From Saccoglossus kowalevskii (lineage: Eukaryota; Hemichordata; Enteropneusta; Harrimaniidae), in assembly GCF_000003605.2 (NCBI RefSeq), contig NW_003109087.1, positions 25,460 through 55,036 of the forward strand: DNA of 29,577 bases, read 5' to 3'. Below the pieces are notes generated by a model. The model ran no database searches and was not told the origin of the DNA. It worked only from the letters and a program-made list of their open reading frames with translations. Positions 366 through 29,553 of this stretch are shown here, piece by piece. How positions within the stretch are numbered: position 1 is the first letter of the stretch; each line of letters begins with the position of its first letter. Position numbers and translations under genes: made by a program.

Positions 366-1188
366 TTAATGTCTACGACTCGCGATATTCGGGAATATGG
401 TCGTAGTTAGCCACAGGAGGGCGATTAGCAACACGACAATCCAGAAAAGGGCTTTTGATCGTTCCCCGTGATCGTTATTATGGGTGACAATGTTGCCATG
501 ACGATACGGTTCTCTGTGTGTACTTTCCCCGTACTGGTTGTGGTATGCATGACATATTGCAATATTTGTACCTGCAAAACACAAACAAATAATTTTTAAA
601 AAAATCATGAAATATTTATACTAATTTGAATAATGTAGTGTGGATCACCTTGAGTAGCCGGTATAATTTGTGTTATATTGCGTAATTCCCTTTGTAGAGC
701 AATTATCGGAAGGTATCTAACATTTTCAACATCGTTATAGCGAATCTGTAATTTGCTCTAAATGGAGCGCGGGAAGACTGTTCAGATATCTTACCCCTGC
801 GATTTGATCTCCACTCTCTGACAATGTTCTGCATTTTTGCTTCAAACTGCCGGGCGTTGCGTATTGAGACTGACCTCCCACCATTAGTAGTAGTGTTTCT
901 TTTTTTCCACTCGTCGGGGTCGATCTTCCGAACTTTCCATGCAGTTATATACTTCACGACCCCATATTCCTCTAGTTTCCGGAACAGATAAAGTCTTCTA
1001 TTACCTGCGTACACCCACCATTTGTCGTTCTTATCGAATACAGCAATTGGTTGAATTGCCGCTGGGTTTATCTCTTTGTACAACAATTGTCGGAAGGTTT
1101 CCAGCATGTTTGTCTTGTCTTGAAAACGACAGTCTATAGAGTCGTGCAGAAAATATATCTGCGACGGTCTCAGTACAACGTTCGGCAT
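366..1188 (-). CDS. Tail-anchored ParB/sulfiredoxin-fold protein (copy 1), two exons
   Basis: Exon 1 runs 1188-795 and exon 2 runs 571-366. The donor after 795 (GGGGTAAG) and acceptor before 571 (tttgtgttttgcag) join in phase 1 and give 199 residues ending in TAA. Residues 1-131 form a ParB/Srx-like domain: LRPSQIYF at 6-13, HDSI at 15-18, and GNRRLYLFRKLE at 62-73, which resembles ParB box II (GERR). Exon 2 adds a polar His/Asn-rich linker and one hydrophobic segment at 172-191 (ALFWIVVLLIALLWLTTTIF), followed by only 8 residues, so the topology is that of a tail-anchored protein facing the cytosol. ParB-fold proteins bind or hydrolyse nucleotides or cut nucleic acid; which applies here is unknown. 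Two paralogues with the same domain lie at 13492 and 27108. The start ATG aligns exactly with both. The domain is confident; the membrane tail rests on a predicted splice with a frame-preserving join. Confidence 0.8.
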
Positions 1189-1337
1189 AATGGCTGTCTA
1201 CATTAAAGCCCAGTGTTTACCCTATACTGCGCAACCGTATTCAATTTCGTGGAAACAATGTACATTTACAGGAATGTATTACGTTACAACACCGAGTATC
1301 ACGGTTGTTTGTTTGGACCTACCAAATGTTATCTAGA

Positions 1338-1348
1338 CTGCGCATGCG
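1338..1348. promoter_or_regulatory. NRF1-like site CTGCGCATGCG
   Basis: The sequence matches the GCGCATGCGC core bound by NRF1/Ewg family factors. A second copy lies at 1496-1506 in the other half of the duplication. Identity to the motif is seen; binding is inferred. Confidence 0.45.
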
Positions 1349-1495
1349 GAATAAAATAAACTGTCCCCATTTCGTAGAAAATATGACGCTCGCTCGCAAC
1401 CTATACAGTCGATTGGTTTTATTTCCGCTTACTACATGTTTCTAACGTGGTGAGGTTGCATGACGGTTATTTGAACCTACCAAATGTTATCTAGA

Positions 1496-1506
1496 CTGCG
1501 CATGCG
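1496..1506. promoter_or_regulatory. NRF1-like site CTGCGCATGCG (second copy)
   Basis: Same motif as at 1338, preserved in the second repeat unit upstream of the minus-strand ParB-like gene. Confidence 0.45.
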
Positions 1507-1634
1507 GAATAAAATAAACTGTCTCCATTTCGTAGAAAATATGACGCTCGCCAGGTTTCTGGCAAACCACGCGACCTATACAGTCGATTGGGTTTATTTC
1601 CGCTCACTACATGTTTCTAGCGTGGTGAGGTGGT

Positions 1635-6700: not shown

Positions 6701-9366
6701 CATTGGTCAGAAGGTATGCACTGGATACTGTGAACGTATTCTTACCTCTCAGCCTCTGTGACCCAGTTCCGTTAATACCCATTAGATACATGTTTATTTT
6801 CGTGTCACCGCTTTATAATGACAACAATACATTTCTGGTTGGTTACTGGCTTACTAAAATAAGTAGAGTACAATGAAAGACGGGGATTAAGAACTCGAAT
6901 ATGGCGCCTGTCATATACAATCTATCATCGAGGAAAGGCCACATGATACACATTGTTAACGCTAATTCCTTTTAACCAATATAGGAAAACAAATCAACCA
7001 ATACATCGAGTTCTTCCAAACAGGATGTCACTACACCTCACGAGAAGAAAATAAAACGTTACCTGCTTCCAGTTCATTTATTTTCTGCAGGACCCAATTT
7101 CCATTTTAAAAGTTTCATGACTGCGGTCGGTTTCGCCCTTTCCCAAGGAAGGGTTATAGTTGAGATTCCGTTTCGCACACATGGGAAAACCCAAGCAAGG
7201 AGTATGATGGGATTTAAACCATTTAATCTTACATTTGACGTGGCTCGTCTACGTGAGTTGATTGACGTGGTACACGTGGATGAATACATACAGTCCTGTA
7301 CTACTGTTGTGGATAATATCATCATGGATCCATACGCTAAAACTGTTTCCGGTTTCCGAACAATGGACGATTTCATGACTGACTACGAACACCATAATCG
7401 TACATTATATCAGCACTTTGGAATTACACTTCCGAAAACAAATAATATTCCGAAAAGTCCTCGAGAAGTTCAAAATTCATTGTCATCCTCCTCAGAAGCA
7501 CGTTGTTTAGCTATGTTCGAACCTAAATACATAACAGGTTTGAATATCACAGAAGGAAATGCAAAGTATGTACAAATGTACAAACACTTATCATGGGCTA
7601 CGTACATCCGGGATATTGCACTAGACATCATAAGAAAACACCTCTCTCCTGCTAACTTCAGTTTTGTTGCCATTCATTGGCGAAACAAAACAGGAGAAGC
7701 GTAAGTATTGTTGTGATCTTATTGCGATGCTGGATTATTTTATCTTCGCATTGTAAAAAAACAAAAAAAAACGAACACTTCGTTCGACCTTTACCAAATA
7801 GTAGATGAGTGTTATTACTATACTAGCAATTGAACAGATATTTGTTGCGCGTTGTATACATCACATGGTACCCTATCAAACGTGACGCATTACGACGACT
7901 GTATTGTACTAACATATGTAATAAGAGTGTAGCTGTCACTTGTAAACATGCATAACGAAAAGTCAAAAGTAATCATGTGTTTGTGTGTAGTTTTAAAATT
8001 AACAAATGTATATGACTTATCGCATTTCAACATTTTATTTCAATTCTCAGATGCGTTCAACAAAACCTATCACAAGACCGCGACAACAAGTATTGTATAG
8101 CTTATAACGTAGAACAAATTAACTATGCTGCGTTACGTCTGTCGAAACATTTGAAATCAATAATGACGGAAAGATATCTGGGAGCAGTTTATGTAGCATT
8201 TCCTGCATATGCAAAGGTAGTATTTATTTATGTAGATTATTTCAAGCAATTATATTGATAACTCGGTTCACAAGAATCGCCTTACACATTTTGTAATTGT
8301 TTTAGATTTTAAAACGAGCTAAAAATGAAATATTTTCAACTTGTTGTGACCTGCTCATATGATTGATTGAATGAACAAAATATACTTAGATACTATGATA
8401 TCGCAACTTTAATACTTTAAGCTCTATACTGTATTTCACGTCTGTATTTAGTTAGACAAGGAAATTAATGTTCACACGATAATGATTTTCACCTGAACTG
8501 AGAAGTTCAATATGAGAACCGCTTGATACATTTGATATAATCTTTGTATGTTCCGTTACCCTTGAATGAAATTTGCTATTATTTTCTCACTTAATTCGTT
8601 TCCATAACAACCACCATGTTACTGGTTTGATAAATGCCTATACTTATTGTGAATCTATTAACTGTATTGTAGGATATTTTAAAATACTTTGCGAAACTTG
8701 AAATTCCGAATGTGGTCACATGGAAAGATATTTTAAAGAAATCTCGGCCGAATGTATCAGCGTTCTCCGACGACAACTACGTCATATCTTTAATAGAGCA
8801 AGAAATCTGTTTCCGTAAGTACACACCCTTTAATTGAATCATTTTATTATGAGCATAAAACATGAAGCAATAATGCATAACTTGTATACAATTGAATAAC
8901 AAGTATTCAGAATCGCAAATTGATAAACTAGATTTCCAATGCGTGGAGTGGCGTTTGGGTCATTCCCATATAAAATTACCTAAATATAGTTACCAATAAT
9001 GTAAATTTACTATGAGTAATGTGTGTGTCTTAAAAACTTTTTAAATTTATGGTGCATACGAACTGTGTATAAATAATAGTATGAGTCATGTAGCTAATCA
9101 ACTGACAAATTTTTAACGTTATACATATTTTAAGTATTCACTGTATTAAATGCATCAGATGGGAACTAATTTTGTTTTGTAATTCTATAGTAACCCGACT
9201 TCTTTTTCTTTTGCTTTTAATCACATTTTTTTTTACAGAAGCCGAATTATTCATAGGATCTAGAATCTCGAGCTGGACAGACGTAGTGGCGTGGCAGAGA
9301 AGCGCCAATGAAAAAGAAACAATGTTTATTCAAGATTTCCGTGACATCGGAATGCGAATAAAATGA
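3745..9366 (+). CDS. GDP-fucose O-fucosyltransferase-like type II membrane protein, five exons
   Basis: Exons are 3745-3999, 6985-7700, 8051-8216, 8673-8814 and 9239-9366, with introns of phase 0, 2, 0 and 1. All use GT-AG, and the join gives 468 residues and a TGA stop. Residues 1-22 (MITTIRVVYLCAIISMVITF...) form a short cytosolic tail and signal anchor, then a Thr/Ser-rich stem to about 105. The catalytic region begins at KRYLLPVHLF; GPN at 121-123 starts the first nucleotide-sugar fold. IHWRN at 315-319 corresponds to the HxR-containing donor-binding motif of the O-FucT family, and the C-terminal EQEICFQAELFIGSRISSW (421-439) matches that family's last conserved block. N-glycosylation sequons (NRT, NIT, NFS) fit a Golgi lumen enzyme. 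It probably transfers fucose from GDP-fucose to a protein or glycan; the acceptor is unknown. The phase-0 join TTDE|ENKS between exons 1 and 2 across 2,985 bp is inferred but frame-consistent. Confidence 0.88.
5434..5532. repeat. 33-bp minisatellite, three units
   Basis: Three tandem 33-bp units (5434-5466, 5467-5499, 5500-5532) differ at one internal base and at the last base. Each is itself built from related pieces (agactcg..., caagactctcc). A degenerate partial unit precedes them (from about 5398). Because 33 is divisible by three, the array stays open in several frames, which makes a spurious ORF of about 148 codons. Confidence 0.92.
6341..6483. mobile_element. 143-bp palindromic foldback (MITE-like)
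   Basis: Two 65-base arms (6341-6405 and 6419-6483) are inverted copies at about 80 percent identity around a 13-base loop (tcacctgcggctc). Termini read gcaataacccccc and ggggttttttgc. It sits inside intron 1 of the fucosyltransferase gene and would fold into one long hairpin in the transcript. A non-autonomous foldback element is likeliest; a structured RNA or miRNA-like precursor is possible. No clear target-site duplication was found. Confidence 0.8.
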
Positions 9367-13137: not shown

Positions 13138-13492
13138 TCTTGTAGAGTCATGCCGCACCTCCACATATACTCCATCGTTTATAGTTGAATGTGTTGCGCC
13201 TATCGAACTTCACCCAGTCCATTGTCTCCAGTGGGATTGCGTTAACTGTTAAAGTAATGATCACACCAAGCTGTTATAATTTCCGATAGAGATATAGTCG
13301 ACGGTTACCAGAATATGCCTTCCACTTATTGTTGTGTGATATTACTTCAATATGTCCAAGTTCTTTTGGCTTGAGTCTTCCATATAACAATGTTTCAAAT
13401 ATGTTCAATAGACTTTGGCGATTTCTGAAACGAGGCTGAATTGAGTCGTGTAGGAAATGTATTTCCGACGGCCTTAATTCCATTACCGGCAT
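13138..13492 (-). pseudogene. ParB-like domain exon with stop and frameshift (copy 2)
   Basis: From ATG 13492 the product aligns position for position with copies 1 and 3: LRPSEIHFLHDSI and GNRRLYLYRKL are intact. The codon after RKL is then TAA (13276-13274), where copies 1 and 3 have Glu73. Similarity continues past the stop (QLGV..., then a counterpart of the KKRNTT block), then shifts frame near the Asn/Gly/Gly segment, where INDGVYVEVRHD in another frame matches NGGASVRIRND of copy 3. It ends at a phase-1 GTTAGT donor, as in the other copies. Two lesions make a full-length product unlikely. A 72-residue truncated product, an unannotated splice or a sequencing error remain possible. Copy 1 is on the same strand, copy 3 on the opposite one. 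Confidence 0.8.
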
Positions 13493-15079: not shown

Positions 15080-15370
15080 GTAAACGCATCAACGCATCAT
15101 CTTTTTTGTTTGGAAAAAAATAAAGTGCACTTATATGTGTACGGACATGACAGTAAGTTTTGTGTATCACTTTCTTGTCCTTCATTAGTGTCTTGTTCAT
15201 TGAAAAAAAGTTACAAAACAAATTCATACATTTTTTTACAAAGTTGTATAAATAAGTTTCACCTTTCTCTCACAACGTATCACTTATCACGTATCACTAT
15301 TTTTTTCAGCACAATGCAGTTGAATAAATATCAATGACACTATATAATTTCATTCTCCGCAGATCCACAG

Positions 15371-18300
15371 TGAACAACGTGCCAAAAATGAACGCCGGCG
15401 AGCCAGTCAAAACGCACAATGGAGAAAACATAGATGAGGGTGAACCTCACATTTTTTTCATCCATAGTGAGAAGGACATAATGTGGATCGAGAAACATAT
15501 CCCACTGATTGAAAAATCGGGTATCCGATGTGCCTACCGAGAGCGGGATTACATTCCGGGAAAGCCTAAAGTTGACAATGTCATTTCGTACGTCAAAAGT
15601 TGTCCGAAAATAGTGATAGTACTGTCTTCAACATTAACTGCCTCGTCTGAATGTGAATATGAGTTACATCAAGCTATAGAGGAAGAGAAAAATCGAGGGG
15701 AAAAAATATTAATTCCGATTAAAATTGGTGACTGTGAGATTCCAAGATCAATATCACACATCTCGTTACTGGATGCAACTCAAGCTAATTTTTTGGACGT
15801 CTTGCAGAGAGCTATTTTACCAGGTAACTAAAGTTCAAATAAATTATTTTAAGTGAAATTAAGTGTATTATTAGTTTATTATTAAAATTTGTTTATTTTA
15901 TGTAAATAGGTGAGCGACAGCAATGGAAATATGTAAAACGGAGAAGTAGAAAACTAGACAAGAGTGGATGTACATCCCCAAAGCAGAAGCATAAACGTTA
16001 TGGCGTGATATTCGATCCTCAGGATCTCGCACATCTGACATCTCCATGTAATATATGGCATGATTACAAACTTGAAGAAGATATGACACAGCCAGGTAAA
16101 TACATATATATATATATTCAACTTAAAATAACAGGTTATCCAACATTATCGGGACAGAAGCATAATCCATTACCAGTGGCATCAATTTTCCCTTTAATCA
16201 CAACAATGGGAAGTGATGTTTTCAGTGAATGAGCCATTTGGATAAATATATAATTTTCAGTTTTATCACAGTAACTTGCATTGTTGATAACACAAAATAC
16301 GTTGTTATATTGTCCCATATATAATTCTACCAAGATGCCATATTTCATTCTGTAATATGACATTTTATTAGATAAATAACTATTAATTGCACAATGAATA
16401 CAATGATTGACTTGCTATTTGGCCAAAGGAGGTCCTTACTGTACTAGGTGATAATAATTGAAAGACTGTATTGTTTGTTTGATCAGGAATTTGAGATTAA
16501 AAGGTTATCGTCTGAATCTCGTGTAAGTGTTTCGGTCTAACAGCGTAGATATCACATTTATTACTTAATTACTGGGCCCAATAAACTTCGCCAATTAAGT
16601 GTATCTCATACACGACGCATTTTCGGAAATGAAAAAAAGTATATATAACATGAATCGCTAACTACTATATTTGTGTAGCATATCTGTGTCCAGATTTTAA
16701 ATTTTGAAATTCTCTAAACTTCATAGTTCCGGACATTTGTATTCGGCAATATTGCCTTTTCATTTAACTAACCAGACTATGTTGCATCAATCGTAGTCTT
16801 GAAGTCTTTACAAGTTACAAAGACAACCATTAACTCCATTGAAATATCATGGACATGTACTGACGCCCTCTACAGTGGTGTTCGTTTGACATGTACACCT
16901 GACGATAGTCGCATATCAGCGTTCACTGTTCTGGTAACTGGACAGGGCATGTCCTATCTATTTAGTGGGTTATCTGCAGGGAGATACCGAATATCAGCAT
17001 GTCTTTTCTATGGTGATAAGAACCCGAACTTGGCGCTTTCTAGTCCTGTCAAACACATTTACGCTGATACTCTGTCTGGTAAGTCATTGACTCCACTTAG
17101 ATAACATGAATCATTATCATGTCCATGTGTGAGTAGTCTGATAAATGACGAAATGAAATATTAGTAACGTTCGTTTGCACTTTCCATTCCACTCAAACTA
17201 TATACTGTGGCGTAGAGTACAGGAAGGGCCTTTGTTGGTCTACGCCGCATTTAGGAGTTGGGAACTTATCTTCAATACAGGTCTTTTAAGGTTCCCTACC
17301 TATAATAAATAAAAAGTACTGGCGCTAGTCGTTTTTGTAGCACTGTCGAAGCATCTGCACTACAATTTAAACTCGTGCTCTGTGTCCATGGAGTATCGGC
17401 AACTGCACTAGTAGCGCTAATATTAGCGCCGATACAACGGGAGCATTTCTGGTAGTGAGCTTCAGTGGTTCCTGTTGATCAGCAGGGGTTACTGCAAAGC
17501 ACGTCTGCATATGTATCCCAGGGTACAGCGCACTGGAGTCAGGAATCAGCATCGCAGGCTTTTACAGAATCAGGTCTGGTCTCCTTCCTGACTAAATGTT
17601 TTCACACATGTTTCAACTTAAATAATACAACTGAATTATGGTCATGCAAACAATAACATGTATCCAACGAAATGATTAGTTATCTCAAAATAGCGGACAA
17701 ATCAGTGTATAGAGAATGCTAATAATGATAGTTGAATAAATCACTTTTTATCCAAGCTCCACCAATTTAAAATATGAGACTCGGGTCAATGATGTCACAT
17801 TTATTTTCATTGCCAGCAACACTTGGCTCATGATCAGCACATTCCAATGTAATCCACAATCACCATGCAACTATCTGAGACATACCATTATACTACAGGG
17901 GAGACAGGATGTATGTATATCAAATTCTGCTGACAATAGAACCCATTGAGTGTACCCAGCAGTCTAAAAATAAACATGTGTAATGGGTTGTTTAAAAATA
18001 TCCAAATATGTGTGCGTTTCATTCATTCGCCAAGGACTTTTCATTTACAATTTACATTTCGTATACATGTACATTTGCTTCATTTTACAGCACCAGTGAA
18101 TGAGTTTAAAAATGTACTCAAGGAAACAAAGTCCACCCAGACGTTACCATTGGATATTACTTGTCAACAGAAATATTCATTTGAGTCGAATTCAACGAAT
18201 GTGAGTTGTTTTAATTATGCCGATTCAAGTTATGACTTGTTATAGCTAACGTGTTGTATTATTCAGTAATTAAGATGTTGTCTTCCATTGTGTTTCAATG

Positions 18301-22154: not shown

Positions 22155-22626
22155 ATGACCACTGACCAGAATCGCACCTCGAATTAGTGTCAGTATGTGA
22201 TTGTTGTTAGTAAGACGGTACATCAATCAGAGATATCCACGACACCGTCAAACTATCCTAAAGATTTATACATAATTCATGCTCCGAATAAAGAAGAATG
22301 GGTGATGAATTTCGCCAGAACCTTTGAGAAAGATAAGCAAATGACATGCTTGTATCCCGCAAAAGATCACGTCCTTAGCGAACATGTCTTCAATAATATC
22401 GTGAATTTGCTACAGGAATCTAAAAATATTCTAACTAATGACCTAATCGACCATTGTCGATACGATATAATGCAAGCGATTTCTGAAGAGAAGGACAGGA
22501 AAACTAACATTATAATTCGAGTTTTTTTAGAAGACTGCAAAATTCCGAAATGCATTAGACAATATGATACTTTAAAAGCAAGGAGACAAGGATTTCAAAG
22601 ACTAATTCTTGCAGCTGTACGTTCAG
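22155..22626 (+). pseudogene. Second, degenerate TIR exon
   Basis: From about 22188 the frame is open to the phase-1 donor TCAG|GTAAAC after 22626, the same exon end as the intact TIR at 15823. The product aligns along its length: KDLYIIHAPNKEEW for box 1, CLYPAKDHV for box 2, IMQAISEEKD, LEDCKIPKCI, and FQRLILAAVRSG. It has lost the Pro-Gly of box 2, four residues of the strand before the active-site helix (KNILTNDLIDHCRYDI), and the catalytic Glu, which is Asp (CRYDI). An ATG at 22155 in the same frame is cut off by TAG at 22185-22187. So it is a pseudogene, or a regulatory TIR spliced in at an acceptor near 22187 or 22193. No linker or FN3 exon follows recognisably; a short candidate terminal exon lies at 23101-23132 (phase 1, GSKLRSNTKF, TAA). 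The open frame past 22626 is probably intron. Confidence 0.65.
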
Positions 22627-22709
22627 GTAAACCATTGATTGAGTCCAAATATATTGATTGCTCCAGCACTGCAAAGGAGGTGATGTTGTCGGCACCTTTA
22701 GTTCGCATA

Positions 22710-22756
22710 AGTCAGTCAGTAGTCAGTCATTCAGTCAGTCATTCAGTCAGTCAGTA
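22710..22756. repeat. CAGT-type microsatellite
   Basis: Repeats of gtca/cagt with ttcagt interruptions, just after the donor of the second TIR exon. Its translation (SQSVVSHSVSHSVSQ) is not evidence of coding. Confidence 0.85.
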
Positions 22757-25700
22757 CATATCAGTTTGTTCAAAAGAAAGGAATACATCTTCAGAGCGGA
22801 ATGCACGTCTAACATTTCAGACTAATACACAACACGTAATTGCACAATTATAGTTTTGTCACAAAATCCAAGAAAGCGGCCAAACCATATCATTGGTCAA
22901 AACTATTTTTCTTTGTATACAAAATATCAAGTTCAATTGGTAAAGAGCAACTTAAGAGCAACAAATGTCCTAAATTGTGTCATTTTTTCTGAATATCCAG
23001 GATAAATCAGAATGACAGAAGTAGAATTCTGCGGGCCAGGCACATGCTAACCAAGCTTTAGTATTGTAGTTACAAAATATTATTACGCATCAATTTTCAG
23101 GTTCTAAGCTGAGAAGCAATACAAAATTTTAAGTCTAAATATCTGCCTAACCAAGAGACCGATCGCAATGCTGTAAGTTAATTGCACCAGTTCCCATTGG
23201 CTATACATATTATATTTAAAATATCAAGTTGATCGGTTGAATCACTCATGAAAAACGAATGCCTCAAATTGTGATTAACTGTGCGACTGGGGCAGTGATT
23301 CAACAAAAATTTCAAATCAATAGCACAAATCTGCCCAGTATGATACTATTTGTGTTTAGACGAAATCTAAAATGCTGCTTAAACCGCTTCACGCCAGATA
23401 ACTTGGAAATGAATCAATACACATATAGACACATTCACACATATTTCATTAGATTATAAAGTAGATTGATAACTGAAACTTACTCCCACGTGTGCAAGGA
23501 TTGTTGTGAAGTTTGAAAAAGTGTTAAACGAAACAAAATATTATAACAAGATAAATTCAAAAAAGCTACGTAAATCTGACTATACACTTTCTCTACTCGA
23601 ACGACAGTAATATTTAAAAAAAATGGTTGTTTCACATATCCGCATTTCATCATGGATTAATTAAACCGTAATTCGTTGATTCCTGATTCATCGCGTCACT
23701 ATTTTGGTGCCTCGGGTGAAGTAGCGATACAATGTATAGTCAACTGGCCTTCTAGTTAACTGGCCCTGTTAAACTGATTCTCGCGACTTTTCAACTGTAA
23801 ACTGACGTAATGACCATGGTACACTGGGTCGAAAATCCGATTAACTAAGTCCTATAACCTGGTTCATATTTATGTCATATTAATTTACTTTATTCCCAAA
23901 ATATATATATATGTTCTACTTATTGAAAGCAACCTTCCCAACTAAAATAAATTGTAATATTTAAAAAATGAGTTAGTCTCTGAACCGAGTACGTTCATTC
24001 TCATACAAGAGAAGAGACCCCTGAGACATGTTGGTGGACTTGCCTTGCATTCTGGGTATTTGTTTACATGCTGTTTGAAAAACATCAGTTTTTTTACCAA
24101 AAAAAGTTAAAAATGGAAACTGTAGAACTCAGATCATTATATTCCACACACATACTATCTCTATTTAATTTATTTTATGTTATTATATTTCCACTTAATT
24201 CTTTGAAACGTATTTACTATATAGGTTGTACTGTATTTCGCTTGATATCATAGGATTTGTACTTTCACTTTGTACATGGCATACTATAACACCTAGAAGT
24301 GCTACATAGTAATTTAAAACTCATATAGTTTGTCAGATTAATTTATATCAGATGTATTTAGCTCATAAAAGACACCAATGTGCATAGTTTCATCAAGTAT
24401 GGGGTAGACCAGTAACAATAGTAGCGAAACGGGGAGGAAGGAGAGAGAACATGGTGGATTTGACAATAACTTGCACTGTTGTTACAATACATTTGGGTAA
24501 ATCCTATTTCTGGAAATTGAAAAAAAAATGACATTACATCACAAACATTACATCTTCTGAAAGCCATTACTTTAAATGGCCCACCCCTAACAGCGTGCGT
24601 GAGTATCAATAATACCTAACTGGTACCATACACAAATTACTTGATATTTATATCAAAACCAGGTTTGTGCGACAGTATTTCATCTTCATGTTTTACAATT
24701 GAAGCATTTATTTTAGAAGCATAACAATACAAAGACCAGCTTTGATGGCGCAATTTATTTATTTATAGTTCTCTGGATCAACGAAAGTGATAAATACACA
24801 GAAGCTACCATATCGAATACAGTTCTAGTCATCCAATTGTCATTGTGTGAGGGACTTGTAAAATAGTGAATGACACTTATCGAACGGTGTCACGCCAAAT
24901 AATTAATATAAGTGTTCATACTCATTTATTTCAGTACTGACATAGGATATTTCAAAAACACCCAGTTGTATTTTATGTTTGAGAAAATTATCCGAACAAT
25001 TTGACATCTAACGATTACGTCATTAGGTATCTTTTCTCCAAACTTCCCCGGCACTGTGAGCAGGAGCGGTAATAAATTCCCGAGAGACTCTAGTTGTCGC
25101 AGTCAAATGAAAACTGCCCAGACTCAAGACGTCCTATGGCACCCGAATCAGCTGCGCGAACCCACTTCTGATGCACTCTTCACTGTAGTGCTATTTTCAA
25201 GTTCATATTTACAACAGATACGAGATATTACACTTATGCATTTAATAAAATCACATGGTCGTCTGGTATTTCAGTCATATCTCTTGTCCGCTCCCTTTAC
25301 TGTAAAACTGGTTGCATGGTCCTATCTGCAACAATGCTTGAGATATGACACTTATGCATATTAATGAGGTCACATGACCATATATGGTCACGTGGTGTTT
25401 CAATCATATCACCGGGCCCCCGCATACGAAGTCACTTTATTTTATCGCTAGGACGTATTCTGCTGTTAAATTTATTATTTCCAACCGTTTTGCGGTAGTA
25501 TTTTCTAGATTGAAGGCAGCATTTACAGGTCATCAAAAGTTGCGTTGGGATTACGTTGATACCCCAGGGGTCACTCTATATGCTGTTACTACCCAAATTT
25601 AGCGGGAAGCGGGATGTTTTTCACTTTCTAAAGCGGGTCCGCGCGGGTGGCAAATATACCCCCTTTAAAATGCCAATGTCTGCAATAGGCCCCCAGAAAG

Positions 25701-27107: not shown

Positions 27108-29358
27108 ATGGCGGACATACAACTGAAACCTTCTGAAATTTATTTTCTTCACGACTCGATAAAAGGTCAGTTTAGAGATGGCAGGCATTTGTTAGATACG
27201 TTCAAAGAATTGTTGTATAAAAGAATAAGTCCATCCCAGATCGAGAAGATCGTTGTATATAGCGCAAACAGCAAATGGCGAGTATACGCCGGAAATAGAC
27301 GACTTTACATTTATAAAAAGTTGGAAGTCCTTGGAGTTGTGGAATATATTACTGCATGGAAAGTATTGACATTGAATCCATACACGTTGAGGAAACGGGA
27401 TACTACTAAAAACGGAGGAGCATCGGTAAGAATACGTAATGACCCTCTGTTTGAGGGAAAAATTACGTGGATCGTAGAAGAATGGAAGACATGGGCTACA
27501 AAAGGTGAGTTGGGGATTGTAAAAAGGTCGTTTTAGTTGAATATATCGTTTGTTGTTAAAACAAGCGCCCGAGTCCATATTCTATGACCTTTTGATATTC
27601 GTCAAAATAATACACACGTACATGTCTAGCTAACGATATTTCTTTCACGGGAATTTTTACAATGACGATGACGGTATTGTATCACGTGACGGTATTGTAT
27701 CACATATATATTTGTTAGTTTGTGCTATACAAACTATGAAACGAATCGTGAATCTTGTTATATTTTTTTCACAAACAATTTGCATATTAAAATTTTGACA
27801 GATAAAATAGCCTCAAGAAGATTGTATAATGTATATTATTATACATCTGTCACCGTAACGCCATAAGTTGCAGCGTGTCGTAATTTTGCGGTATTTTACG
27901 GGTATTTTCATCCTACCATATTAGGAAATGCGAATTCCAAATATGGAATAATTACGCGCGTAAGCGTCCTCTAATAATAAAAACAAACATGACTGCCACC
28001 AGAGTTGACCGGACTCCACACAAAGAAGTTCGCTGATTCTGTTCTAAACATTTTGAATTTTGGCATTCCCATGGTGTACCCTTGGAACGAAAAGATGTAT
28101 AATAATAAGGTTATTACGAGAATACCTCAAAGTATATACTCAGACAGTACTCCGCGCATCGACCGCCGCTGCGCGTCGGTGGATACTCCAGCTGCTTTCA
28201 AATGTATAAGACTAACAATATTTTCAATTTTAATAAAATGGTTTTCAAAGGAATCACAAATTTGTGGTGATGCAATGTTTAGCAAGCTATAACCAATCGT
28301 TCAAGGTTTACCAAACATATTCTCAAAACTACAATATAGTTATGCAAAGGTGGTTGAAGTCTACAATAAATCCCTATGAAAGTATGTGTACATGCCAAGT
28401 TTTTCCTGATTTTTTATATAGAATGGTTTAGAAAAGAGAACCTAATTTTTTTATGCAAAACATTTGCTGTTGCATTCTCGATGTTGACACAATTTTAGCT
28501 GTATTTAGCAGATAAATCAGCCCAAGCAATGTATGTATTGAAACGTTACATTTCCACAAGAAACACAGAATATTTTCCAGATATTCAATTTCTTGATAAC
28601 TTAAAAAGTTCATGTGATAATAATATATTATATATATATTTACAAGTAATTTCAATCAAGAAATGACAGTGCCATGTGATCTTGTTGCTTTCTCATATAT
28701 TGTTCTCCTTGACCATATTGAATCGTTTGTCAAAGGATATGTTTCTAGCAATATCATTGCTAAAAATGATTCATACAGCAGGTCCGGCAGGATTTATTAA
28801 TAGTTATAATATGGACATGATATTAGTTCAAAGTCAGTGATCTACATAGAGTTCCAGGTAGATCAGTAACAGAGCCTGAATTGCAACACTCATTTTGAAG
28901 TTTGGATTTTTGCTCAGTTGTGGTAGCTCTCCTCACTACTGCTAATCGTTTCCAAGGGAATGTTGTCAATGTTCAAAACTGTATAACTCTATGTCAGACA
29001 AAAAATGTGTGGAAGGATGTGTATGTGCCACTTCACTTTACAAAAAGTTGTTATGTATAATTAGTGGCTAGAAGAACGGTCTCACTCATTCAAAGAATGT
29101 GTTTGCTACATTCATGATGTTGACACTGCTTCACCAGTATAGGTAATATTTATATTCCTTTTTTTAAAATTGGTCTTCCTGTTTATATTATAGCTTCTAT
29201 CCAAGGCCAAACTGCTGCAGATGATATTGGTCAAAACGGTGCATACATCAGTGACTGGCAGCAAGATCGTCAAGATTGTATTGGATTTTCATCTCGTGCT
29301 CTCCATACTCCAGGGCATGAGCCCTGTGACTATATTGACGAGCAAGGAAAACAAACAA
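27108..29358 (+). CDS. ParB/sulfiredoxin-fold protein (copy 3), 5' part; continues beyond window
   Basis: Exon 1 is 27108-27504: ATG in context agtaATGG, 132 codons plus one base, donor AAAG|GTGAGT. The domain matches copy 1 residue for residue in its landmarks: LKPSEIYFLHDSI at 6-18, GNRRLYIYKKLE at 62-73, VEYITAWKV, and NGGASVRIRND. A likely exon 2 is 29194-29358 (acceptor gtttatattatag, donor ACAA|GTAAAA), 165 nt, phase 1-1, open throughout. It encodes a polar segment (ASIQGQTAADDIGQ..., HEPCDYIDEQGKQT) unlike the copy 1 tail and without a membrane segment. The gene must go on past 29577. The GNRR motif is the counterpart of the nucleotide-contacting ParB box II; the activity is unknown. 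Exon 1 is confident, exon 2 moderately so. Confidence 0.78.
27505..29193 (+). other. Intron of ParB-like copy 3 with internal duplication
   Basis: Phase-1 intron. The open frame at 28005-28292 shows no family features. Segments near 28430-28510 and 29069-29140 (tttgctgttgcattctcgatgttgacac against tttgctacattcatgatgttgacac) are related, part of a larger duplication. Confidence 0.5.
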
Positions 29359-29553
29359 GTAAAAGCAGATTGTTTTTTTTTTTTAAATACATATGAATAT
29401 AGAATTGATTGTCATTTATTTATTAAAATAACAGAAATTCTTGTATTTAAATAGCGGTCCAGTTAAATCAAGAACAGAGCCTGAATTGCAACACCCATTT
29501 TGATAGTTCGGATTTATGCTCAGTTGTGATAGCTCTTCTTACCACTGCTAATA
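28848..29553. repeat. Direct repeats of about 100 bp, 600 bp apart
   Basis: Copies at about 28848-28946 and 29452-29553 share cagagcctgaattgcaacac, attttga, tgctcagttgtg and actgctaat at roughly 85-90 percent identity. They flank the candidate exon 29194-29358, and with the related pair at 28430/29069 suggest tandem duplication units of 600-640 bp. Confidence 0.8.

What the first reader, a model, noticed from the sequence alone, without database searches (positions are those of the whole stretch)
366..1188. A ParB-fold domain carried on a tail-anchored membrane protein in an animal
The splice from 795 to 571 preserves frame and adds one hydrophobic segment with an 8-residue C-terminus. ParB/Srx-fold proteins are known as soluble nucleotide or DNA-handling proteins; a membrane-anchored animal version is, to my knowledge, unusual and would place the domain on the cytosolic face of an organelle.
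Basis: partly seen in the sequence, partly recalled or inferred. Interest (0 to 1): 0.8.

Follow-up and report, generated by a model that had tools for sequence, protein, structure and literature searches.

The report
Membrane-tailed ParB-like gene in an animal
A small two-exon animal gene appears to join a ParB-like domain, a kind already reported in animals and thought to derive from bacterial toxins, to a membrane-anchoring tail; the gene model looks sound, but the domain itself is not new and the anchor is so far only a prediction.

Summary
On the minus strand, exon 1 (1188-795) splices in frame to exon 2 (571-366), giving 199 residues with one hydrophobic segment (172-191) and an 8-residue tail. 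Both splice sites rank near the top of the window. Exon 1 belongs to a six-copy family in this 572-Mb genome. All 5 intact copies have a phase-1 donor at the end of the domain exon and third-position-biased differences. No other good acceptor tested gave a membrane tail (0 of 134).

The fold reading is plausible but weakly tested: no Pfam ParB match, uninformative AlphaFold models (pLDDT 48 and 40), and a weak profile match to bacterial ParB that pairs GNRR with GERR and beats 430 of 430 shuffles.

The novelty claim is too strong. Zhang et al. 2012 described Tox-ParBL1, a ParB-like family, in metazoans, with a conserved N-terminal Ser and an [NT][RT][RT] motif; Ser9 and NRR (HRR in one of six copies) fit. 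It is not a sulfiredoxin. What may be new is the tail anchor, found in this copy alone; localisation and activity are untested.

The parts
795..1188 (-). Exon 1 of gene A: 131 codons + 1 base, the whole ParB-like domain; ATG at 1188-1186, stop in frame 4 codons upstream
   Evidence: four intact paralogues 37-54% identical; third-position-biased differences
1162..1164 (-). Codon for Ser9, the same in 6 of 6 copies; candidate for the conserved N-terminal [ST] of Tox-ParBL1
   Evidence: definition from PMC3482391
994..1002 (-). Codons for N63-R64-R65 (AGNRRLY), placed against ParB GERR
   Evidence: hhalign pairs GNRR with GERR; GNRR in 5 of 6 copies, GHRR in copy D
572..794 (-). 223-nt phase-1 intron, GTAAGA...TTTTGCAG
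   Evidence: phase-1 donor in all 5 intact copies
366..571 (-). Exon 2 (completes a split codon, then to the stop; 68 residues with the split codon), no second copy found in the genome
393..452 (-). Predicted membrane segment ALFWIVVLLIALLWLTTTIF (residues 172-191), followed by the 8-residue tail PNIASRRH
   Evidence: GRAVY 2.5; chance control
27108..27504 (+). Paralogue B, first coding exon of the same domain, strong donor AAG|GTGAGT, phase 1
13190..13492 (-). Paralogue F, same domain, with an in-frame TAA after 72 codons: a broken copy or a sequencing error

Best explanation
Gene A is a probable member of the animal ParB-like (Tox-ParBL1-type) family. Its first coding exon encodes the whole domain; a phase-1 intron joins it to a private last exon that adds a linker of about 40 residues and one C-terminal hydrophobic helix. 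The product would be a 199-residue tail-anchored protein, put into the ER or outer mitochondrial membrane after translation, holding the domain in the cytosol. Most likely mechanism: the domain binds a nucleotide or phosphate through its GNRR segment, as ParB and sulfiredoxin do through GERR/GCHR, and acts on or senses phosphorylated substrates or nucleic acid next to that membrane. Shown by sequence: exon, frame, splice signals, family, hydrophobic tail. Inferred: ParB-like fold, membrane insertion, orientation, ligand. Not known: activity. Reading the intron through would give a soluble 161-residue form.
For: Splice model and frame; phase-1 donor in 5 of 5 intact copies and a Met at the same place, five residues before the conserved L, with an in-frame stop upstream in 6 of 6; third-position bias in 10 of 10 pairs of intact copies; membrane tail rare by chance. 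ParB-like: hhalign against 26 bacterial ParB domains scores 20.2 (P 0.011, probability only 3.9%), above 30 of 30 (max 15.9) and 400 of 400 (max 19.9) column shuffles, pairing the query segment ending in AGNRRLY with the ParB segment ending in IAGERRWR; NCBIfam Noc model at E = 0.043 on residues 43-74, in 1 of 5 copies, gene A; Ser9 and NRR fit the published Tox-ParBL1 motifs.
Against: No Pfam match for gene A; the only Pfam match among 5 copies is one copy to a polymerase model, E 0.0025. PF02195 finds nothing in the whole genome. The hhalign probability is low and its margin over the best of 400 shuffles is small (20.2 against 19.9). AlphaFold models are poor (pLDDT 48.2 and 39.6) and the structural second look had no match. 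No second copy of exon 2 was found. Behind paralogue D, whose fetched downstream DNA has no N, no membrane exon was found within 6 kb. Of four poly-A hexamers sought behind the stop, only AATATA at 233 was found. No transcript data.
Confidence: 0.62

Rival explanations
1. The ParB-like gene is real, but its main transcript uses another last exon or retains the intron, so the usual product is soluble and the hydrophobic frame at 571-366 is not part of it.
For: No second copy of exon 2 was found; no matching membrane exon behind B, D or E in the readable DNA scanned; another acceptor at 757 scores 8.3; the unspliced frame adds only 30 residues before a stop.
Against: The 571 acceptor is the best-scoring of those listed between the donor and the window's end (10.8) and is among the best in the window (7 of 2775); the 757 alternative would leave an intron of only 37 nt; phase and a long open frame follow at once.
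Confidence: 0.2
2. The hydrophobic frame is a separate tiny gene: an ATG at 608-606 opens an 80-residue frame MIFLKIICLCFAG... that looks like a signal peptide plus one membrane helix.
For: The frame 620-366 is open with an internal Met.
Against: Its signal-like start is encoded by the polypyrimidine tract and AG of a top-ranked acceptor, which suffices to explain the hydrophobic residues; no homologue found in the genome with exon 2; the Pfam matches of the frame (DHHC E 0.0054, COX6A E 0.0076) are below their curated cut-offs.
Confidence: 0.07
3. The domain is not ParB-like but an unrelated small alpha+beta fold sharing a GxRR helix start.
For: No curated ParB profile matches above its cut-off; hhalign probability is 3.9%; structure prediction was uninformative.
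Against: The match falls on the GERR segment and exceeds every shuffle; the low-confidence model of gene A has strands and helices in a ParB-like order; the published Tox-ParBL1 motifs fit.
Confidence: 0.15

Closest known systems
Tox-ParBL1 family (Zhang et al. 2012, PMC3482391; section 25 read, other mentions and Table 2 seen as passages)
   Same: Predicted ParB-related fold, conserved N-terminal Ser/Thr, [NT][RT][RT] motif mostly with RR; reported in metazoans and other eukaryotes
   Different: The bacterial members are toxin domains of polymorphic toxins; here a lone domain on a predicted tail-anchored protein. The paper's domain-architecture figure and supplement were not seen
Bacterial ParB / Noc N-terminal domain (PF02195)
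   Same: GxRR segment aligned by hhalign; weak Noc match
   Different: No Pfam match; N or H instead of E in GERR; the 199-aa product has no recognised DNA-binding or dimer domain (that ParB has these is recalled)
Sulfiredoxin
   Same: Same superfamily, small single-domain animal protein (recalled; relation to ParB stated in PMC3482391)
   Different: Lacks the F(S/G)GCHR motif described as strictly conserved (PMC9925728 passages); the position of the Cys is Asn. That paper also reports seven animal species with a ParBc domain but without this motif

Membership tests
Tox-ParBL1 | Conserved N-terminal Ser/Thr | tested here: met
   Ser9 in 6 of 6 copies; that this is the paper's Ser is my inference, its alignment was not seen
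Tox-ParBL1 | [NT][RT][RT] motif, last two mostly R | tested here: met
   NRR in 5 of 6 copies, including gene A; HRR in copy D
Tox-ParBL1 | Profile similarity to ParB | tested here: inconclusive
   hhalign P 0.011, probability 3.9%, above 430 of 430 shuffles
Tox-ParBL1 | Sequence similarity to its known members | not tested
ParB (PF02195) | Match to the Pfam ParB_N model | tested here: not met
ParB (PF02195) | GERR motif | tested here: not met
   GNRR or GHRR
Sulfiredoxin | F(S/G)GCHR catalytic motif | tested here: not met
   YAGNRRL, no Cys
Tail-anchored protein | Single C-terminal hydrophobic segment with a short tail | tested here: met
   Residues 172-191, tail of 8; best window before residue 150 0.40, so no hydrophobic N-terminal signal
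Tail-anchored protein | Post-translational membrane insertion | not testable with these tools
   Needs localisation and extraction experiments

The most novel reading that the evidence does not exclude
A toxin-derived ParB-like domain has been domesticated in an animal as a tail-anchored, cytosol-facing enzyme or sensor on an organelle membrane, in a small family with three copies lying among TIR-domain genes, and may serve intracellular defence.
Probability: 0.2. Interest if true: 0.65.

Novelty: new variant of a known kind. Interest (0 to 1): 0.35.

Why it matters
For the animal Tox-ParBL1 domain I found only the 2012 description and no tested function in the library searched (searches; seen as listings, three papers opened). 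A copy with a membrane address would give a first handle on where the domain acts, and copies with and without the anchor would allow a direct comparison. If the anchor proves to be a mis-called exon, the finding is an ordinary new member of a known family.

Full report
What was checked. The finding claims a two-exon gene on the minus strand joining a ParB-fold domain to a membrane tail. Splicing exon 1 (1188-795) to exon 2 (571-366) gives 600 nt, 199 residues and a stop. The intron is 223 nt with GTAAGA at the start and TTTTGCAG at the end; of 16 neighbouring donor/acceptor pairs tried it is the only GT...AG one. Of the six acceptors listed behind the donor down to the window's end it scores best (10.8, next 8.6 at 144 and 8.3 at 757).

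The first exon is coding. The genome in which the window lies (G000, 572,110,611 bases, 4830 contigs) yields six copies of the domain: A (this gene), B and F in the window, C on the same contig, D and E on two others; the same six come up with A and with E as query. The search scores only its best candidates, so six is a lower bound, and a search with D never ran. Copies B, C, D and E are 54, 53, 42 and 37% identical to A. In all 10 pairs of the five intact copies the third codon position differs most. All five have a phase-1 donor at the end of the domain exon, in E about 20 codons further on, and all six have a Met at the same place, five residues before the conserved L, with an in-frame stop upstream. 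Copy F carries an in-frame TAA after 72 codons.

The membrane tail. Exon 2 supplies one hydrophobic stretch, residues 172-191 (mean hydropathy 2.54 over 19 residues), and the tail PNIASRRH; the best window before residue 150 scores 0.40. As a chance control I followed every AG site of the readable fetched DNA in the same phase, the focal site lying outside the scanned range: 3 of 5348 give a C-terminal segment of 2.5 or more, 0 of the 134 acceptors scoring 7.5 or more do, and none of the three frames reaches 50 codons. Against the anchor: no second copy of exon 2 was found in the genome (the only other match has E 4.4). Within 6 kb behind B, D and E no similar exon was found and behind C only weak ones. 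About 65%, 42% and 88% of the fetched stretches L008, L009 and L012, which serve B, C and E, read N, so for these three the absence is not firm; the stretch behind D (L010) has no N.

The domain. Pfam gives nothing for A; the single Pfam match among five copies is one copy to a polymerase model at E 0.0025. PF02195 finds nothing in the whole genome although it rings in 11 of 14 control genomes. The best library hint is the NCBIfam nucleoid-occlusion (Noc) model, E 0.043, on residues 43-74 of A, in 1 of 5 copies. I built a profile from 26 of the 30 ParB loci fetched and compared it with the five-copy alignment: score 20.2, P 0.011, probability 3.9%. 30 of 30 and 400 of 400 column-shuffled alignments score lower (maxima 15.9 and 19.9), so the margin is real but thin. 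The aligned segment pairs AAIQPIAVF...WWVYAGNRRLY with the ParB segment that ends in IAGERRWR. AlphaFold with the few rows allowed gave pLDDT 48.2 and 39.6.

What is known. Zhang et al. 2012 (PMC3482391; section 25 read in full, other mentions as passages) describe Tox-ParBL1, a family related to ParB by profile comparison, with a conserved N-terminal serine, a motif given as [NT][RT][RT] mostly ending in RR, and members in several metazoans, fungi, plants, stramenopiles, ciliates and kinetoplastids. They read it as an acquisition by eukaryotes from polymorphic toxins, distinct from sulfiredoxin. Here Ser9 is present in six of six copies and NRR in five of six, HRR in the sixth. I therefore file the domain as a probable Tox-ParBL1 member. 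PMC9925728 (passages) adds that seven animal species have a ParBc domain without the sulfiredoxin motif. A search for ParBL1 returned three papers, of which I opened only the 2012 one; the other two titles concern ParABS segregation and orchid cell-cycle genes. A search for 'ParB domain' with 'tail-anchored' returned none. So the animal ParB-like domain is known; a tail-anchored form I did not find in print by these searches, but the 2012 paper's figure and supplement were not seen.

Mechanism. By analogy with ParB and sulfiredoxin, whose equivalent of this segment (GERR, GCHR) lies at the nucleotide site (recalled), the GNRR segment probably binds a nucleotide or phosphate. The tail would hold the domain at the cytosolic face of the ER or outer mitochondrial membrane; high hydrophobicity (GRAVY 2.5) leans to the ER and the two tail arginines to mitochondria (recalled rules). 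Both steps are inferred. Neither the ligand nor the activity is known; the lack of the Cys motif argues against sulfiredoxin chemistry.

Setting. The window also holds a TIR-domain frame, a second TIR-like frame and an O-fucosyltransferase-like exon (the second TIR-like frame is my reading, Pfam does not call it). The mitochondrial COX1 match has 7 TGA inside, read as Trp, which with these genes fits an animal; the phylum was not determined. The nearness of TIR frames to three copies of the domain is suggestive of a defence locus, no more.

Verdict. Observation confirmed; gene model likely (about 0.7 by my judgement); ParB-like fold likely (about 0.8); tail anchoring likely if exon 2 is used. 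The claim of an unprecedented animal ParB-fold protein is not upheld; a new architecture of a known family is the better reading.

Noticed in passing
window 15328-15831 (+): TIR-domain frame (PF13676, E 7.4e-13), between copies F and B of the ParB-like family; a weak fn3-like frame follows at 16772-17104 (E 0.0079, below cut-off).
   Followed up: partly
window 22188-22853 (+): Frame that by eye resembles a diverged TIR domain; Pfam does not call it.
   Followed up: no
window 6985-7704 (+): O-fucosyltransferase-like exon (PF10250, E 8.3e-8).
   Followed up: no
window 1309-1631: Repeats of 85 and 62 nt (96% and 94% identical), two copies each, upstream of gene A: a recent local duplication near its putative promoter.
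   Followed up: no
L009:3404-4986: Downstream of copy C there are several hydrophobic frames behind weak acceptors, one a 70-residue frame ending in a hydrophobic segment plus SHR; possibly a second tail-anchored copy, possibly chance.
   Followed up: partly
L009:448-1503: Long frame that by eye looks like a carbohydrate sulfotransferase upstream of copy C.
   Followed up: no
window 29195-29360 (+): Possible next exon of copy B in matching phase behind a weak acceptor (read by eye); no membrane segment seen in it by eye.
   Followed up: no
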